Assembly (NCBI GenBank): GCA_019240655.1
Contig: JAFAXX010000132.1
Span: 1-64,000 of the forward strand
Direction of reading: 5' to 3'
From: Solirubrobacterales bacterium
Lineage (GTDB): Bacteria > Actinomycetota > Thermoleophilia > Solirubrobacterales > Solirubrobacteraceae
Length of the DNA: 64,000 nt
Position 1 is the stretch's first letter. Every line of letters starts with the position of its first letter. Below the pieces are notes generated by a model that searched no databases, was not told the origin of the DNA, and worked only from the letters and a program-made list of their open reading frames with translations. The position numbers and the translations under genes are program-made. Positions 45,450 through 52,659 of the stretch are shown piece after piece.

Positions 45450-45871
45450 ACGGCGAAGCGCGCTACGAACAGGATGGCGAACACCGCGAGGTATGAGGCG
45501 GTGACCAGGGCTGCGCGGAAGCCGTGATGGGCCGGGATGCTCTGCACGTGCCGCTGGGTCCAGGCGGTCGACTCGGTCGTGAGGAGGAGGGTGATGGCCG
45601 AGACTACGATGTAGGCGCCGACCTCGCGCCCGAGCGCCACGCGGCCGCGGAGCTTCCACGCCCACCGGCGGTTGAGGATCCAATTCGGGACCGCGCCGGC
45701 GACGAACGCCGTAACCGAGCACACGGCCGTGCTCACGCCGAACACGTAGAGCATCGCGAACACCACGGCGCTAGTCGCGGCCGCAACGATCGACCCCACG
45801 GTGTAGCGCGTGATTCGCGCTCCCAGCGGTGAGCCCCGCAATCTCCGGTAGTGCGCAGGGAACATGTACAC
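45350..45871 (-). CDS. GtrA family membrane protein
   Basis: Four TM helices; RYTVGSIVAAATSAVVFAMLYV; PNWILNRRWAWKLRGRVALGREVGAY; FAVYEVWIF. Confidence 0.85.
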   Translation of the reverse strand: MYMFPAHYRRLRGSPLGARITRYTVGSIVAAATSAVVFAMLYVFGVSTAVCSVTAFVAGAVPNWILNRRWAWKLRGRVALGREVGAYIVVSAITLLLTTESTAWTQRHVQSIPAHHGFRAALVTASYLAVFAILFVARFAVYEVWIFSGRSRVRAAVRSRFHVWSAARANRTP

Positions 45872-45975
45872 CCAAGCTTATCCGCTCGTGGTGTTGGGTC
45901 CGTGTAAGAGAACCAGGTTTTGCAGACCCACGGCGGCGGCGACGCGCCGACGGCGCCGATAGCGTGCCACGTTGT

Positions 45976-46887
45976 ATGCGCGTGCAAGGCGTAACCGAGC
46001 CGCTCCGCCTCAACGACGACCTGGTCCTCCTCGGCGACAACGCGCTCGCCCTATCGGCGCTGCCGGCCGGTGCCTTCGACCTGATCTACATGGACCCCCC
46101 GTTCAACACCGGGCGGGTCCAGGCGCGCCACACTTTGACCGTGGCGGCCGACGACCGAGGCGGACGGGTGGGCTTCGCCGGGCGCCGCTACCGCTCCCGG
46201 CTGTTGCAGAGCCTGAGCTACGACGACGCGTTCGCGGACTATCTCGAGTTCCTCGAGCCGCGACTCGTGCAGGCGCGCTCGCTGCTGGCCGAGCACGGGA
46301 CGCTGTACTTCCACATCGACTACCGCGAGGCGCATTACTGCAAGCTGCTGCTCGATGAGGTCTTCGGTCGCGATGCGTTCCTCAACGAGCTGATCTGGAC
46401 CTACGACTACGGCGCCAAGCCGCGCCGGCGCTGGCCCGCCAAGCACGACACGATCCTGGTCTACGTGCGTCGTCCGGGCGCACACCACTTCGACGCCGAC
46501 GCGGTCGAGCGCGAGCCGTACATGGCGCCGACCCTAGTCACAGCCGCGAAGGCGGCCCGCGGAAAGCGGCCCACCGACGTCTGGTTCCACACGATCGTGC
46601 CGACCAGCGGACGCGAGAAGACCGGGTACCCGACCCAGAAGCCCGAGGGGGTGCTGCGCCGGATGGTCGCCGCCTCCTCCCGGCCGGGTGGGTGGTGCCT
46701 CGACCCGTTCGCGGGCTCGGGCACGCTAGGCGCCGTCTGTGGCCGACTCGGCAGAAGGTACGTGCTCGTCGACGTCAACCCGGTGGCGGTCGAGGTGATG
46801 CGGGAGCGGCTGGGCTCGGTTCCTGCGACACCGGCGGCGGGTGCCATCGGGACGCCACCGGTCGGCGGGTGGTCCGCCACCGGCTAG
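45976..46887 (+). CDS. Site-specific DNA methyltransferase (DPPF motif; beta-class order)
   Basis: FDLIYMDPPFNTGR (motif IV) early, WCLDPFAGSGTLGAVCGRLGRRYVLVDVN (motif I) late, WFHTIVPTSGREKTGYPTQKPEGVLRRMV. Confidence 0.92.
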   Translation: MRVQGVTEPLRLNDDLVLLGDNALALSALPAGAFDLIYMDPPFNTGRVQARHTLTVAADDRGGRVGFAGRRYRSRLLQSLSYDDAFADYLEFLEPRLVQARSLLAEHGTLYFHIDYREAHYCKLLLDEVFGRDAFLNELIWTYDYGAKPRRRWPAKHDTILVYVRRPGAHHFDADAVEREPYMAPTLVTAAKAARGKRPTDVWFHTIVPTSGREKTGYPTQKPEGVLRRMVAASSRPGGWCLDPFAGSGTLGAVCGRLGRRYVLVDVNPVAVEVMRERLGSVPATPAAGAIGTPPVGGWSATG

Positions 46888-46947
46888 CGAACCTCGTCTC
46901 CCTTCCCTGCGCCACCGGTCGGCGGGCGGTCCGCCACCGGCTAGCGA
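46854..46947. repeat. 37-bp hairpin-forming direct repeat, period 57, across the convergent gene ends
   Basis: gccaccggtcggcggg(t/c)ggtccgccaccggctagcga at 46854-46890 and 46911-46947; ggcgg-loop-ccgcc and ccggt/accgg stems. Confidence 0.9.
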
Positions 46948-47609
46948 CCGGGGTCTCCCTTCCCGGCACCACCTTCGCCATCGCCCTCAGGTTCGCCGCG
47001 GACCAGCGGCACGAACCGCACCGCCTCCAGCCGCTCGCGCGCGAAGCCCTCCGGTGTTCGACGGGTGAGGACCAGGTGCTGGCGGTGGTTTCCGACCGGG
47101 ACGACCATCCGGCCACCGGGCGCGAGCTGGCGCTCGAGCGCGCCCGCCACCTCGTCGCCGGTCGCGGCGGCGACGTTGATCACGTCGAACGGCGCCAGCG
47201 CCGGCAGTCCCTCCGTCCCGTCGGCGACCAGGAAGCTGACGTTGTCGATTCCCAGCCCGCGGATCGAGCGTTCGGCCTCGGCGCTCAACGCCGGATGCCG
47301 TTCGATCGTCCAAACGTGATTCGCCAGCAGCGCCAGGAGGGCGGCGTGGTAGCCCGACCCCGTCCCGATGTCGAGGACCCGATCTACGGGCTGCACGGCC
47401 AGCGCCTCGAGCATCCGCGCGACGACCAGGGGCTGCGAGATCGTTTGGCCGCAGGCGATCGGCAGCGCGACGTTCTCGTACGCCCGGTGCCGCTCGGCGG
47501 CGGGGACGAAGCGATCCCGCGGGATCGAGGCGACGGCCGCGAGGACGCGCTCGTCGGCGACCGCGGCTCGCAGCCGCTGGGCAAGTGCGGCGGCCTGGCT
47601 CAGCTCCAT
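46941..47609 (-). CDS. pcm: Protein-L-isoaspartate O-methyltransferase
   Basis: ISQPLVVARMLEALAVQPVDRVLDIGTGSGYHAALLALLA; PFDVINVAAATGDEV; LAPGGRMVVPVG. Confidence 0.93.
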   Translation of the reverse strand: MELSQAAALAQRLRAAVADERVLAAVASIPRDRFVPAAERHRAYENVALPIACGQTISQPLVVARMLEALAVQPVDRVLDIGTGSGYHAALLALLANHVWTIERHPALSAEAERSIRGLGIDNVSFLVADGTEGLPALAPFDVINVAAATGDEVAGALERQLAPGGRMVVPVGNHRQHLVLTRRTPEGFARERLEAVRFVPLVRGEPEGDGEGGAGKGDPGR

Positions 47610-48447: not shown

Positions 48448-49137
48448 TCACCGCCCACCGTCCGGCGCCTCCAGGTACGCTCGCACCGCGTCGAGGAACC
48501 GCACCGCGTGCGCCCCATAGAGGATGCGGTGATCCCCGGCCAGCGTCACGGTCATCAGCTTGGCCTCGGCCAGCGATCCGCTCCGCGCTACGACAACCGG
48601 GCGAACCTGTCCGGCCGCGAGCGCGGCGGCCTGCGGCGGGTTGATCACCATGCTCGCGCTGCTGAGTCCGTGGGCGCCGGCGTCCCACAGGGTGAACGTC
48701 GCGCCCGAGAAGGCGGGCGGGGCGAGCCGGCGCTCGCGTGCGGCGGTGGCGAGCTCGGCCAGCTCGGCGCTCAGGTCCTCGAGCGACTTCTGGTCGGCGT
48801 CAAACACGGTGGGGATGACGTAAACGTCCTCCTCGGCCACGACCACGCCGACGTTGACTCGCGAATAAAGCTCGAAGCGCCCGTCGCGGTAGGCAGCGTT
48901 GGCGCGGGGAACCGTCCGCAGCGCGAGTGCGCACGCGCGGACCAGCACGGCGGTGAGGGAGCAGCGCTCGGGCTCGAGGCGCTCGACCGCGGCCGCCATC
49001 TCGACTTCGATCGACATCTCGACGTGTGGGATGGTTGCCCGGGACTCGGCGGTCCGCCGCGCCACGGTGCGCTGGGCCGCGCTCGGCTCGGCAACCGCCA
49101 TCTCCCCCTTGACGCCGGCTGTCGGTGACTCGGCCAC
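48448..49137 (-). CDS. 2-oxoacid dehydrogenase E2-type acyltransferase catalytic domain, no lipoyl domain
   Basis: RRTAESRATIPHVEMSIEVEM; RVNVGVVVAEEDVYVIPTVFDADQKSLEDLSAEL; FSGATFTLWDAGAHGLSSASMVINPPQAAALAAG; VTLAGDHRILYGAHAVRFLDAVRAYLE. Confidence 0.85.
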   Translation of the reverse strand: MAESPTAGVKGEMAVAEPSAAQRTVARRTAESRATIPHVEMSIEVEMAAAVERLEPERCSLTAVLVRACALALRTVPRANAAYRDGRFELYSRVNVGVVVAEEDVYVIPTVFDADQKSLEDLSAELAELATAARERRLAPPAFSGATFTLWDAGAHGLSSASMVINPPQAAALAAGQVRPVVVARSGSLAEAKLMTVTLAGDHRILYGAHAVRFLDAVRAYLEAPDGGR

Positions 49138-49210
49138 GCCCGGCAACACTAATGGACCCCACCGAACCCGTTCCGGCGTGGCGACCACGCCTGGGCGATC
49201 GCGCAAGGGC

Positions 49211-49298
49211 CCAGGTCGAGCCCCTCCCAGGTCGAGCCCCTCCCAGGACGAGCCCCTCCCGGGTCGAGCCCCGCCCAAGTCGAGCCCCGCTCAGGTCG
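49211..49298. repeat. 16-bp tandem repeat, about 5.5 units (consensus AGGTCGAGCCCCTCCC)
   Basis: Units at 49211, 49227, 49243, 49259, 49275, 49291. Confidence 0.93.
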
Positions 49299-49376
49299 CG
49301 GCGGTCCGGACCGGCGAGGAACGCCCGCTCGAGCGCCGGTCGCGAGACGATCAGGTGGCAGCGGCGTTGGCTCGCA

Positions 49377-50003
49377 TCAGTCGCGGCCGGCCCCGAGCGC
49401 GGCCGCCGCCTCGGCGACCGAGCCGAGGCCCTCGTACACCCGCCGCCCGACCTGGATCGCCGGGAGGCCCCTCACCCCGGCGCGCTGCGCCCGGCCGCCG
49501 GCGTCACGGAGGGCATCGCGCACCGACCGCAGAGCGATGCCCTTGAGCACTGCGGTGGGGTGCATCTCGCAGGCGGCGGCGGCGATCAGCACGGTGTTGC
49601 GATCGCCGAGGTCGCGGCCGCCCGCGAACTCCTGGCGAAATGCCGCCAGCGAGAAGGCGACGGCGCGGCCGACGCGCTTGGCGTAGGTCGCCGCCAGCAT
49701 CGCGGTAGAGGTGTCCGGCGGCCACCGCGACGGCCAGCGGACCGGCTGGAGCCCGAGCTCCCGGGCCCGCGCCTCGATCTCGGCGCGATCGCCGGCCAGC
49801 GCCTCGATCTCGGCGGGGTCGCCGGCCAGCGCCTCGATCTCCGTGCGATCGTGGCGGCCGTCCCACGGCTCCAGCGCCCCGGCTGACACCGGCTCCCATT
49901 CCGCCACGACCGGCAGCGTGGGCATGACCTGTTCGGCGACCAGGTAGCAGACTGGGTCGCCGAGGTCGTAATAGAAGACAGGCTGGACCAGCGCGCTGCT
50001 CAG
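49377..50003 (-). CDS. DsbA-family / 2-hydroxychromene-2-carboxylate isomerase-like protein; start non-canonical or uncertain
   Basis: In-frame N-terminus VFYYDLGDPVCYLVAEQV lies upstream of the first ATG (49925); C-terminal GVRGLPAIQVGRRVYEGLG is thioredoxin-fold cis-Pro like; candidate CTG start overlaps lpdA stop. Confidence 0.65.
   Translation of the reverse strand: MSSALVQPVFYYDLGDPVCYLVAEQVMPTLPVVAEWEPVSAGALEPWDGRHDRTEIEALAGDPAEIEALAGDRAEIEARARELGLQPVRWPSRWPPDTSTAMLAATYAKRVGRAVAFSLAAFRQEFAGGRDLGDRNTVLIAAAACEMHPTAVLKGIALRSVRDALRDAGGRAQRAGVRGLPAIQVGRRVYEGLGSVAEAAAALGAGRD
49771..49850 (-). repeat. 30-bp tandem repeat (about 2.7 units) encoding EIEALAGDxA in the DsbA-like gene
   Basis: gcctcgatctcggcg(cga/ggg)tcgccggccagc at 49771, 49801, partial 49831. 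Confidence 0.9.
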
Positions 50004-51370
50004 CCGTGGATCAGCCAGCCATCGGCCGCCCGCCCAGCCTCCATCACGGCCTCCGACAGCGTCGGGTGCCCGTGGACGATCCGGGCAACCTCCGGGTAGC
50101 CGCCCTCCAGCGTGCGCGCGTTGACGAGCTCCTGGATCAACTCGGTCGCCTTCGCGCCGACGATGTGGCCGCCGAGCAGCTCACCGTATCTGGTGTCGCC
50201 GACGATCTTGACCAGCCCGGTGCGGTCGCCGTACACAGTGCCGGCGCCTACCGCCCCGTACTGCACCTTGCCGACCACCACGTCATGGCCCTGCTCTCGC
50301 GCCTGGGCCTCGGTGAGGCCGAAGCTGGCCACGTTCGGTGTACAGAAGGTGGCGCGCGGGATGTCGATGTACTCGATCGGGTGGGTCTCGAGCCCGGCGG
50401 CGTGCTCGACTGCGATCACCCCCTCGTCGGAGGCCTTGTGGGCGAGCGCGGGCCCGTGCACCAGATCGCCGATCGCATACACGTTCTCGGCGCTGGTCCG
50501 CATCGCACCGTCGACCGCGATCAGCCCGCCGGTGCCGAGCTTGACGCCGGCCGCGTCGAGGCCGAGCGCGTCCACGTCGGGACCGCGGCCGGCCGCGATC
50601 ACCAGCCAGTCGACCTCCGCCGTCTCCTCGCCGTAGCGGAAGCGCACGGCGGCGTCCGAGGGCTCGATGTCCGCGACGAGGGTGTCGGTGTGGATCTTCA
50701 TGCCCTGACGGCCGAGCCCGCGCTGGACGAGCTTCGAGATGTCGGCGTCCTCGGTCGGGAGCACCCGGTCGAGCGCTTCGAACAGCAGCACGTCGACGCC
50801 GAGCCGGGCGTACGCCGAGGCGATCTCGGCTCCGGAGGCGCCGGCCCCGACCACCGCCATCGTGCGCGGCAACTCTGCGAGCGCCCACGCCTCCTCGGTG
50901 CCGATCACCCGCGCGCCGAACGACGCGCCGGGGATCGGCTTCTTGACCGAGCCGGTGGCGAGGACGACCGTGCGGGCGGTGAGGTCCTGCTCGCCCACCG
51001 CGACGCCTGCGCCGGGTCGCAGGCGGCCCTCGCCCTCGATCAGCTCGATCCCGTGCTTCTTGAACAGCCCGGCCACGCCCCCGGTGAGCGTCTTGATCAC
51101 CCGGGCGCGGCGCGCCCGCACGGCGTCGTAGTCAACCCGCGGCTCGCCGACCTGGATCCCGAAGTCGCCGGCGTCGCGAACCTCCGACAACACATCGGCG
51201 ACACGGAGCACGGCCTTGGCCGGGATGCAGGCGTAGTTGAGGCAACGACCGCCGACCTCGTCCTTTTCGACCACCGCGGTCCTCATGCCGAGCTGCGCGG
51301 CGCGGATCGCCGCCACATAGCCGCCGGGGCCGGAGCCGATGACCACGCAGTCGAAGGACGGGTCGGGCAC
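50000..51370 (-). CDS. lpdA: Dihydrolipoyl dehydrogenase
   Basis: CVVIGSGPGGYVAAIRAAQLG; VGGRCLNYACIPAKAVL redox disulfide; VYAIGDLVHGPALAHKASDEG; HGHPTLSEAVMEA. Confidence 0.95.
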   Translation of the reverse strand: MPDPSFDCVVIGSGPGGYVAAIRAAQLGMRTAVVEKDEVGGRCLNYACIPAKAVLRVADVLSEVRDAGDFGIQVGEPRVDYDAVRARRARVIKTLTGGVAGLFKKHGIELIEGEGRLRPGAGVAVGEQDLTARTVVLATGSVKKPIPGASFGARVIGTEEAWALAELPRTMAVVGAGASGAEIASAYARLGVDVLLFEALDRVLPTEDADISKLVQRGLGRQGMKIHTDTLVADIEPSDAAVRFRYGEETAEVDWLVIAAGRGPDVDALGLDAAGVKLGTGGLIAVDGAMRTSAENVYAIGDLVHGPALAHKASDEGVIAVEHAAGLETHPIEYIDIPRATFCTPNVASFGLTEAQAREQGHDVVVGKVQYGAVGAGTVYGDRTGLVKIVGDTRYGELLGGHIVGAKATELIQELVNARTLEGGYPEVARIVHGHPTLSEAVMEAGRAADGWLIHG

Positions 51371-51419
51371 GGCCGCGGAGCGTAGCTGAAGCGCTGCGGG
51401 CGGCGACGCTCGCCCGCGG

Positions 51420-51992
51420 CTAATCGCTTCGCGGCTGCCGTGGCAGCTGCAGCCGGCTGAGGACGCGCACGAGCTTGAAGAACAGCCAGCCACCGCCGCC
51501 GATGACCGCGAGCGCGACGATGACGCCGAGCAGATTGCTCGCGCGGATCAGCAGCAGCGAGAAGACGAGTATGACCAGCGCGAGGATGGCCTGGAAGCCG
51601 AGCACAGCCCAATAGCGCAGCTGCCACATCCCGACCGCGCAGACCAGCATCACGACCGAGAACGCCACGATGCCGCCGATGCCCGGGTGGGCGCTGCCGA
51701 ACTTGACCTTCCCGCCCGCCACCACCTCCACGAGGTCGCCGGCGCCGATGAACAGCGCAAGCCCGGCGGCGATCCTGACCGCCCATGGACGCTCCCCCGG
51801 GGCCAGCGGCGTCAGCGTCGCCCGGACGGCCGCGTTTCGCTCCTCCGAGCGGCTGCGATGAGGAACAGCGGGCGAGGGCGCGCCATCCTCGGGGGCAGGG
51901 AAGCCCGGCCGCGGCCCCGGCGCCTCGGGAGCGGCAGTGCCTTCCGGCCGGCGCGAGCGCTGTCCGCGCTTGCGACTACGCGGAGGCAACAC
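51420..51992 (-). CDS. Hypothetical membrane protein (four TM helices)
   Basis: Hydrophobic segments in IAAGLALFIGAGDLVEVV...LLGVIVALAVIGGGGWLFFKL; start uncertain. Confidence 0.55.
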   Translation of the reverse strand: MLPPRSRKRGQRSRRPEGTAAPEAPGPRPGFPAPEDGAPSPAVPHRSRSEERNAAVRATLTPLAPGERPWAVRIAAGLALFIGAGDLVEVVAGGKVKFGSAHPGIGGIVAFSVVMLVCAVGMWQLRYWAVLGFQAILALVILVFSLLLIRASNLLGVIVALAVIGGGGWLFFKLVRVLSRLQLPRQPRSD

Positions 51993-52659
51993 GCTCCTTC
52001 GCTGGGCGCGGCAACCGCCGGCGCAGCTGCGCCGCCGCGGCTTCGGGGTCGTCCGCGTCGGTCAGCGCTCGCACCACGGCGATCCGCTCGGCGCCGGCGG
52101 CGACCACCGCGGAGACGTTCTCAGGGCCGATCCCGCCGATCGCGAAGAACGGAACCGCGGCGTGCGCGGCGGCGTAGCGCACGAGACCGAGGCCGACGGC
52201 GGGACGTCCGGGCTTGGTCGGCGTGGCGTAAACCGGCCCCACCCCGATGTAGTCGGCCACTGCCGAGCCAGCCCGGCCGACTGCGGCGTCGACCTGCTCC
52301 GGCGAGTGGGTCGAGAGGCCAACCAGGCGCTCAGCCCCGACGAGCCGCCGTGCGGCCCAGAGCGGCTCGTCGTCCTGCCCGACGTGGACGCCGTCGGCAT
52401 CGGCGGCCACCGCGAGGTCGGGTCGGTCGTTGACGATGAACAGCGCGCCTTGGCGGTGGCATAGCGCGCGGAAGCGCCGCGCCGCCGCCAGCACGGCGTC
52501 GTCCGATCCGTCCTTGACCCGCAGCTGCACGATGTCGACGCCGCCGCGCAGCGCCGCGGCCAGGAACGCGTCGGAGCGCTCGTCACAGATCAGGTAGAGC
52601 GCGGCCGCGCTCAGGCGCTCGCGTCGGTCGGTCACAGTGCCAAAGCGTCGGTCGGTCAC
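51976..52659 (-). CDS. thiE: Thiamine-phosphate synthase
   Basis: LYLICDERSDAFLAAALRGGVDIVQLRVKD; FIVNDRPDLAVAADADGVHVGQDD; DYIGVGPVYATPTKP; FFAIGGIG. Confidence 0.95.
   Translation of the reverse strand: MTDRRFGTVTDRRERLSAAALYLICDERSDAFLAAALRGGVDIVQLRVKDGSDDAVLAAARRFRALCHRQGALFIVNDRPDLAVAADADGVHVGQDDEPLWAARRLVGAERLVGLSTHSPEQVDAAVGRAGSAVADYIGVGPVYATPTKPGRPAVGLGLVRYAAAHAAVPFFAIGGIGPENVSAVVAAGAERIAVVRALTDADDPEAAAAQLRRRLPRPAKERVASA

What the first reader, a model, noticed from the sequence alone, without database searches (positions are those of the whole stretch)
48448..49137. E2 acyltransferase domain with the catalytic Asp of HxxxDG replaced by Tyr
E2 enzymes end with a DHRxxDG motif. Here the DNA reads GAT CAC CGC ATC CTC TAT GGG GCC = DHRILYGA, so His is kept and Asp becomes Tyr. 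The protein has no lipoyl or E3-binding domain, and sits on the same strand just beyond lpdA and a DsbA-like gene. It may be a stand-alone acyltransferase of altered specificity or a scaffold.
Basis: partly seen in the sequence, partly recalled or inferred. Interest (0 to 1): 0.65.

Follow-up and report, generated by a model that had tools for sequence, protein, structure and literature searches.

The report
Lipoyl-less E2 core beside dihydrolipoyl dehydrogenase
A soil actinobacterium and its relatives keep a stripped-down copy of the core of a central-metabolism enzyme (pyruvate dehydrogenase E2), next to its usual partner gene; the odd tyrosine that drew attention is normal for this lineage, and the open question is what the lone core does.

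Summary
In detail: window 48448-49137 (-) encodes a ~229-aa E2 catalytic core (PF00198, E 3e-48) reading DHRILYGA, with no lipoyl or subunit-binding domain. The Tyr is not an oddity of this protein: 36 of 38 related full-length-group E2s of Solirubrobacterales carry it. The Asp it replaces is a minor contributor in E. coli E2o (D379A keeps 9.5% activity) and is Asn or Gln in other known E2s; the two important residues (Asp and His of 'DHR') are kept. What is unusual is the lone core. It belongs to one clade of stand-alone cores that sits next to lpd in all 16 same-genus loci examined; in other genera the cluster is lpd-DsbA-(small protein)-E2core-lipB-lipA. Relatives are under purifying selection and nearly all keep Asp-His-Arg, but have lost the Ser/Thr slot (Trp here) and the hydrophobic C-terminal tail that joins trimers into cubes. 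Best reading: a trimeric core-only E2 paralogue acting in trans on lipoyl domains of other proteins (confidence 0.45). Rivals: non-catalytic scaffold, or a subunit mixed into full-length E2. New variant of a known kind; no experimental data.

The parts
48448..49137 (-). Stand-alone E2 catalytic core CDS (229 aa from GTG 49137, stop at 48450-48448)
   Evidence: PF00198 E 3e-48; AlphaFold2 pLDDT 88.6, best PDB matches E2 cores, E ~1e-24; 15 sequences aligned
48511..48534 (-). DHRILYGA motif: Asp202-His203-Arg204 kept, Tyr207 in the HxxxDG Asp slot
48685..48687 (-). Trp151 in the slot of A. vinelandii Ser558 / E. coli E2o Thr323 (FTxSNLG reads FTLWDAG); also Trp in the nearest same-genus relative L007
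   Evidence: alignments
49210..49298 (.). 16-bp tandem repeat (5.6 copies) that replaces most of a small gene (F18) present here in relatives
49295..49377 (-). Relic of the ~80-aa F18 gene found between DsbA and E2core in relatives (26-residue match, E 2e-4, frameshifted after MRAN)
   Evidence: intact copies in L037, L038, L046, L185, L194
49377..49990 (-). DsbA-like thioredoxin-fold gene; residues homologous to the relatives' N-terminus (FYYDLGDPVCYLVAEQV) are encoded upstream of the listed ATG 49925
   Evidence: PF01323 E 6e-8; sequence
50000..51373 (-). lpdA, dihydrolipoyl dehydrogenase (E3); neighbour of the stand-alone core in all 16 same-genus loci examined
   Evidence: TIGR01350 above cut-off; synteny
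51420..51992 (-). Small protein gene with hydrophobic segments, no Pfam match, part of the conserved cluster
51976..52659 (-). thiE, thiamine-phosphate synthase, upstream end of the cluster
   Evidence: its relative in L042 hits PF02581; synteny

Best explanation
The gene encodes a core-only E2 paralogue derived from the order's own lipoylated 'YG-type' E2 (pyruvate-dehydrogenase-like) by loss of the lipoyl domain, the subunit-binding domain and the C-terminal anchor. It most likely forms a free E2-type trimer, not a 24-mer or 60-mer, and exchanges acyl groups between CoA and lipoyl domains carried by other proteins (the fused 2-oxoglutarate dehydrogenase, other E2s, the lipoyl-bearing E3, GcvH), with the adjacent E3 reoxidising the lipoyl group. 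Shown here: fold, domain loss, common descent, neighbourhood, purifying selection in relatives, retention of Asp-His-Arg. Inferred: trimer state, activity in trans, identity of the carrier and of the acyl group. Tyr is an inherited lineage trait and need not change the chemistry.
For: E2-core fold. Stand-alone cores of the genus form one clade apart from full-length E2s (bootstrap 100 / SH-aLRT 98 against 21 full-length and 3 outgroup E2s; SH-aLRT 99 in the 87-row tree). lpd is the neighbour in 16 of 16 same-genus loci; in other genera of the family the core lies between lpd-DsbA-(F18) and lipB-lipA, and in another family in E1a-E1b-E2full-E2core-lipB-lipA operons. Asp 16/16, His 15/16, Arg 16/16 in the clade. 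dN/dS 0.12-0.22 in seven pairs of relatives with 77-94% identity. Precedent: isolated E. coli E2o core works in trans with free lipoyl domains plus E1 and E3 at about one tenth of intact E2o efficiency, with Asp374 and His375 as the key residues (PMC5986005). Lipoyl carriers other than this protein exist in the genome: Kgd with two lipoyl domains, E2s and an E3 with lipoyl domains, GcvH.
Against: The Ser/Thr slot, conserved in 37 of 38 full-length-group E2s, is lost as Ser in 15 of 16 clade members, mostly to bulky residues (Trp here), which may hinder catalysis; one member (L015) has Leu for His. For the window gene itself dN/dS is 0.4-0.5 at large distances, so selection on this copy is not well measured. 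No carrier partner is pinned down by sequence, and thiE in the same cluster shows that neighbours need not share a pathway.
Confidence: 0.45

Rival explanations
1. Non-catalytic scaffold or regulator: an E2-core trimer that has lost efficient catalysis and is kept as a structural or binding protein, for instance holding E3 or the DsbA-like protein, comparable in logic to E3-binding protein.
For: Active-site drift in the genus clade: Ser slot changed in 15 of 16, Trp here; His lost in L015; Tyr-Gly altered in L027 (His-Gly), L048 (Gln-Ala) and L049 (Gln-Ser). Strong conservation elsewhere (PRxNxxYRDGR). Stand-alones in other genera of the family keep Ser in 9 of 11, so the loss looks later and specific.
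Against: Asp and His are both kept in 15 of 16; the Ser/Thr slot is worth only about 2-fold in E. coli E2o (T323A, PMC5986005). No E3-binding domain is present.
Confidence: 0.3
2. Core-only subunit that co-assembles with a full-length YG-type E2 and lowers the number of lipoyl arms per particle.
For: In family f3 a core-only gene directly follows the full-length E2 in the PDH operon (L186, L195, L201, L202, L204, L208). The two single-contig genomes of the window's genus (G012, G016) also have full-length YG-type E2s.
Against: 7 of 16 same-genus genomes with the stand-alone core show no YG-type full-length E2, where incompleteness predicts 2.1 (P 0.0017); the own genome shows only distant E2s (31-38% identity), although an E1-alpha-like gene ends at a contig edge, so a missing partner is possible. 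The C-terminal anchor for higher assembly is lost.
Confidence: 0.15
3. Decaying gene with no remaining function in this strain.
For: The neighbouring F18 gene is a relic, tandem repeats lie just upstream of the start, and the nearest relative is only 58% identical.
Against: Intact frame, kept DHR motif and fold, conserved neighbourhood, purifying selection in relatives.
Confidence: 0.1

Closest known systems
Lipoylated E2 of PDH-type complexes in Solirubrobacterales (YG-type)
   Same: Same core, same DHRILYGA motif, about 42-52% identity, common ancestry
   Different: They carry lipoyl and subunit-binding domains, the Ser of FTxSNLG and a hydrophobic C-terminal tail; they often lie with E1 genes
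OdhA/KGD E2o domain (PMC10415282)
   Same: E2 core whose HxxxDG Asp is replaced (Gln320); trimer without cubic assembly
   Different: Fused to E1o; active-site pair His316/Gln320 instead of His/Tyr; a distant E2 branch (the genome's own Kgd is 29% identical over 123 residues)
Actinobacterial AceF (E2p) reduced to trimers
   Same: Predicted loss of trimer-trimer contact at the C-terminus
   Different: There by a three-residue insertion with Phe; here by loss of the terminal hydrophobic tail; AceF keeps lipoyl domains
E3-binding protein / protein X
   Same: E2-core paralogue, possibly non-catalytic
   Different: Protein X keeps lipoyl and E3-binding domains and lacks the His; here the reverse
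Isolated E. coli E2o core domain, CDo (PMC5986005)
   Same: Core without lipoyl domain; works in trans
   Different: Artificial construct, not a natural gene

Membership tests
2-oxoacid dehydrogenase acyltransferase core (PF00198) | Profile match over the whole catalytic domain | tested here: met
   E 3e-48, profile positions 9-228 of 232, 164.7 bits against cut-off 23
2-oxoacid dehydrogenase acyltransferase core (PF00198) | Asp and His of the DHR motif | tested here: met
   D202, H203; key residues by mutagenesis in E. coli E2o (PMC5986005)
2-oxoacid dehydrogenase acyltransferase core (PF00198) | Asp of HxxxDG | tested here: not met
   Tyr207; but Tyr is the rule in the order's full-length-group E2s (36 of 38) and Asn or Gln occur in known active E2s, so the feature is not strictly defining
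2-oxoacid dehydrogenase acyltransferase core (PF00198) | Trimer with interface active sites | not testable with these tools
   Only a monomer was modelled
E2 component of a 2-oxoacid dehydrogenase complex | N-terminal lipoyl domain | tested here: not met
   No PF00364 or other family in the ORF; no lipoyl domain at this locus in the genome-wide PF00364 search
E2 component of a 2-oxoacid dehydrogenase complex | Peripheral subunit-binding domain | tested here: not met
   Pfam scan shows PF00198 only
E2 component of a 2-oxoacid dehydrogenase complex | C-terminal hydrophobic anchor for cubic assembly | tested here: not met
   Tail AYLEAPDGGR; mean 0.8 hydrophobic residues among the last five in the clade against 3.0 in full-length-group E2s
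E2 equivalog families (NCBIfam) | Score above the curated cut-off | tested here: not met
   Best TIGR01349 148.6 bits against 445, as expected for a protein with one domain
OdhA/KGD | Fusion to E1o | tested here: not met
   Single-domain ORF; the genome's Kgd is a separate gene (L005)
E3-binding protein | E3-specific subunit-binding domain with an inactive core | tested here: not met
   No such domain; His kept

The most novel reading that the evidence does not exclude
Solirubrobacterales have a vertically kept, core-only E2 protein as a separate component of their lipoate and 2-oxoacid dehydrogenase machinery, encoded between lpd and lipB-lipA, that handles acyl groups on lipoyl domains of other proteins or serves lipoylation itself; in the window's genus it is drifting from catalysis towards another role.
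Probability: 0.35. Interest if true: 0.6.

Novelty: new variant of a known kind. Interest (0 to 1): 0.42.

Why it matters
E2 proteins are textbook swinging-arm enzymes. A natural, conserved core without its arm, next to E3 and to the lipoate attachment genes, would be a natural counterpart of the E. coli in-trans experiments. The lineage also gives a graded series (full-length, core-only with Ser, core-only without Ser, one member without His) in which loss of catalysis could be tested step by step. It also corrects the view that an altered HxxxDG by itself marks an altered or dead E2.

Tried and rejected
Strain-specific mutation or sequencing error: rejected, Tyr conserved. F18 as a separate lipoyl domain (split E2): rejected, no lipoyl match. 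The 87-aa carrier at C168 as a free lipoyl domain: rejected, it has a biotin motif (EIMKSF). First genome-contig scan with the single protein found nothing; the alignment scan worked. Whether all stand-alone cores of the order share one origin is undecided: the free tree splits them, holding the two main groups together is not rejected (p-AU 0.69). Plasmid-borne E2s outside the order (Phaeobacter, Streptomyces, Rhodococcus, Halosolutus) have normal Asp. That cyanobacterial and plastid E2s also carry Tyr is my recollection; I found no tool or paper here to confirm it. Literature searches found no report of this protein or of lone E2 cores in this order (open-access papers only).

Full report
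OBSERVATION. Pfam gives one domain, PF00198, over nearly the full profile. No lipoyl or subunit-binding domain is present, and the ORF above GTG 49137 is largely a 16-bp tandem repeat. Order of the cluster on the minus strand: thiE, a small hydrophobic protein, lpdA, a DsbA-like gene, the relic of a small gene, E2 core.

HOST. The nearest named relatives are Solirubrobacterales (Thermoleophilia, Actinomycetota), among them Conexibacter sp. S30A1, whose record has the same length as a single-contig genome of the window's genus group. The genome is a 191-contig assembly, 91.5% complete.

THE TYROSINE. The motifs read in related full-length E2s of the order are DHR[IV][LIV]YG. On an alignment of 75 cores, the 38 full-length-group E2s have Tyr 36, Asn 2, with Asp and His of DHR invariant and Ser of FTxSNLG in 37. 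That group includes a few rows cut by contig ends or without a recognised lipoyl motif; most members of the wider set show one upstream. Four plasmid-borne E2s from other groups have the usual Asp, and the genome's own distant E2s have Asp in three and Gln in Kgd. So Tyr is an inherited lineage trait. In E. coli E2o the equivalent Asp379Ala keeps 9.5% of activity, whereas Asp374Ala and His375Ala cost 54-fold each and Thr323Ala about 2-fold (PMC5986005). OdhA uses a His316/Gln320 pair (PMC10415282) and A. vinelandii E2p has Asn614 (title of Hendle 1995, cited in PMC8421416). The change therefore gives no ground for inferring altered specificity.

THE LONE CORE. Stand-alone cores occur in 16 of 25 genomes of the genus group counting the window (one of them partial). 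Those tested form one clade against full-length E2s (100/98) that also takes in one genome of another genus of the family (G163, L189). Other genera of the family have further stand-alone cores that lie near this clade (SH-aLRT 88, not decisive), and family f3 has a separate well-supported group (99), mostly located directly after the full-length E2 in the PDH operon. Whether all share one origin is not settled.

NEIGHBOURHOOD. lpd adjoins the core in all 16 same-genus loci examined (window, L036-L049, L051). In other genera the order is lpd, DsbA-like, F18, E2 core, lipB, lipA (L184, L185, L194, L199, L206 in whole or part); lipB and lipA were identified by Pfam. In the window's genome lipB lies elsewhere, next to another E2. 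This ties the protein to lipoate metabolism, by association only.

ACTIVE SITE AND ASSEMBLY. In the genus clade Asp is 16/16, Arg 16/16, His 15/16, the HxxxDG slot Tyr 12, Phe 2, His 1, Gln 1. The Ser slot is Val 6, Ile 3, Trp 2, Thr 2, Ser 1, His 1, Leu 1. Stand-alones in other genera of the family keep Ser in 9 of 11, so the drift looks later and specific. The C-terminal hydrophobic tail, which in E2s makes the trimer-trimer contact (knob and socket, PMC10415282), is absent (0.8 against 3.0 hydrophobic residues in the last five); a free trimer is inferred. The monomer model is confident (pLDDT 88.6) and its best solved matches are E2 cores; the active site lies between subunits and was not modelled.

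SELECTION AND PARTNERS. Seven pairs of relatives with 77-94% identity give dN/dS 0.12-0.22 (NG86). Distances from the window copy itself are too large for a firm value. Seven of 16 same-genus genomes with the core show no YG-type full-length E2, against 2.1 expected from incompleteness (P 0.0017, assuming one copy per genome and independent loss). The two single-contig genomes do have one. In the own genome an E1-alpha-like gene ends at a contig edge, so a partner may be unassembled.

MECHANISM. The key residues are kept, an isolated E2 core is known to work in trans with free lipoyl domains (PMC5986005), and lipoyl carriers and E3 are present. I therefore prefer a core-only acyltransferase acting in trans, at 0.45, over a non-catalytic scaffold (0.30), co-assembly with full-length E2 (0.15) and a decaying gene (0.10). 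No activity has been shown for any member.

VERDICT. Observation confirmed; the highlighted residue is ordinary for the lineage; the stand-alone, lpd-linked core family is a new variant of a known kind of modest to fair interest.

Noticed in passing
49210-49377: The small F18 gene (~80 aa, no Pfam family) that sits between DsbA and the E2 core in relatives is a relic here, frameshifted after MRAN and overrun by a 16-bp tandem repeat.
   Followed up: yes
49377-49990: The DsbA-like protein lacks a CxxC motif, contains a 30-bp in-frame tandem repeat (49764-49851), and its homologous N-terminus lies upstream of the first standard start codon in frame.
   Followed up: partly
L005 (G000:C63): The genome's 2-oxoglutarate dehydrogenase (Kgd/OdhA type) carries two lipoyl domains and a subunit-binding-like segment N-terminal to the fused E2o-E1o, with DHRIIQGA in the E2o domain.
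   Followed up: partly
L186:3216-8564, L195:1605-7917 and L201, L202, L204, L208: In another family of the order the PDH operon reads E1a-E1b-E2full-E2core-(~141 aa protein)-lipB-lipA, with His in the HxxxDG slot of the core-only protein (DHRVLHG) and Ser kept.
   Followed up: partly
L036:7974-8873, L040:4418-5569, L044:8885-10003: A gene family downstream of the E2 core in many same-genus genomes (F6, about 300-430 aa, conserved N- and C-terminal parts) has no Pfam match above cut-off.
   Followed up: no
L057 and L065 (G000:C116:24358-26040): A second dihydrolipoyl dehydrogenase carries its own N-terminal lipoyl domain, next to an AceF-type E2.
   Followed up: no
L222:5938-6873 (G000:C139 end): An E1-alpha-like gene runs to the end of its contig; its E1-beta and E2 partners may be missing from the assembly.
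   Followed up: partly
46853-46973: 57-bp tandem repeat (2.1 copies) at the end of the gene at 45829-46887, which looks like a DNA methylase by its sequence (not scanned).
   Followed up: no
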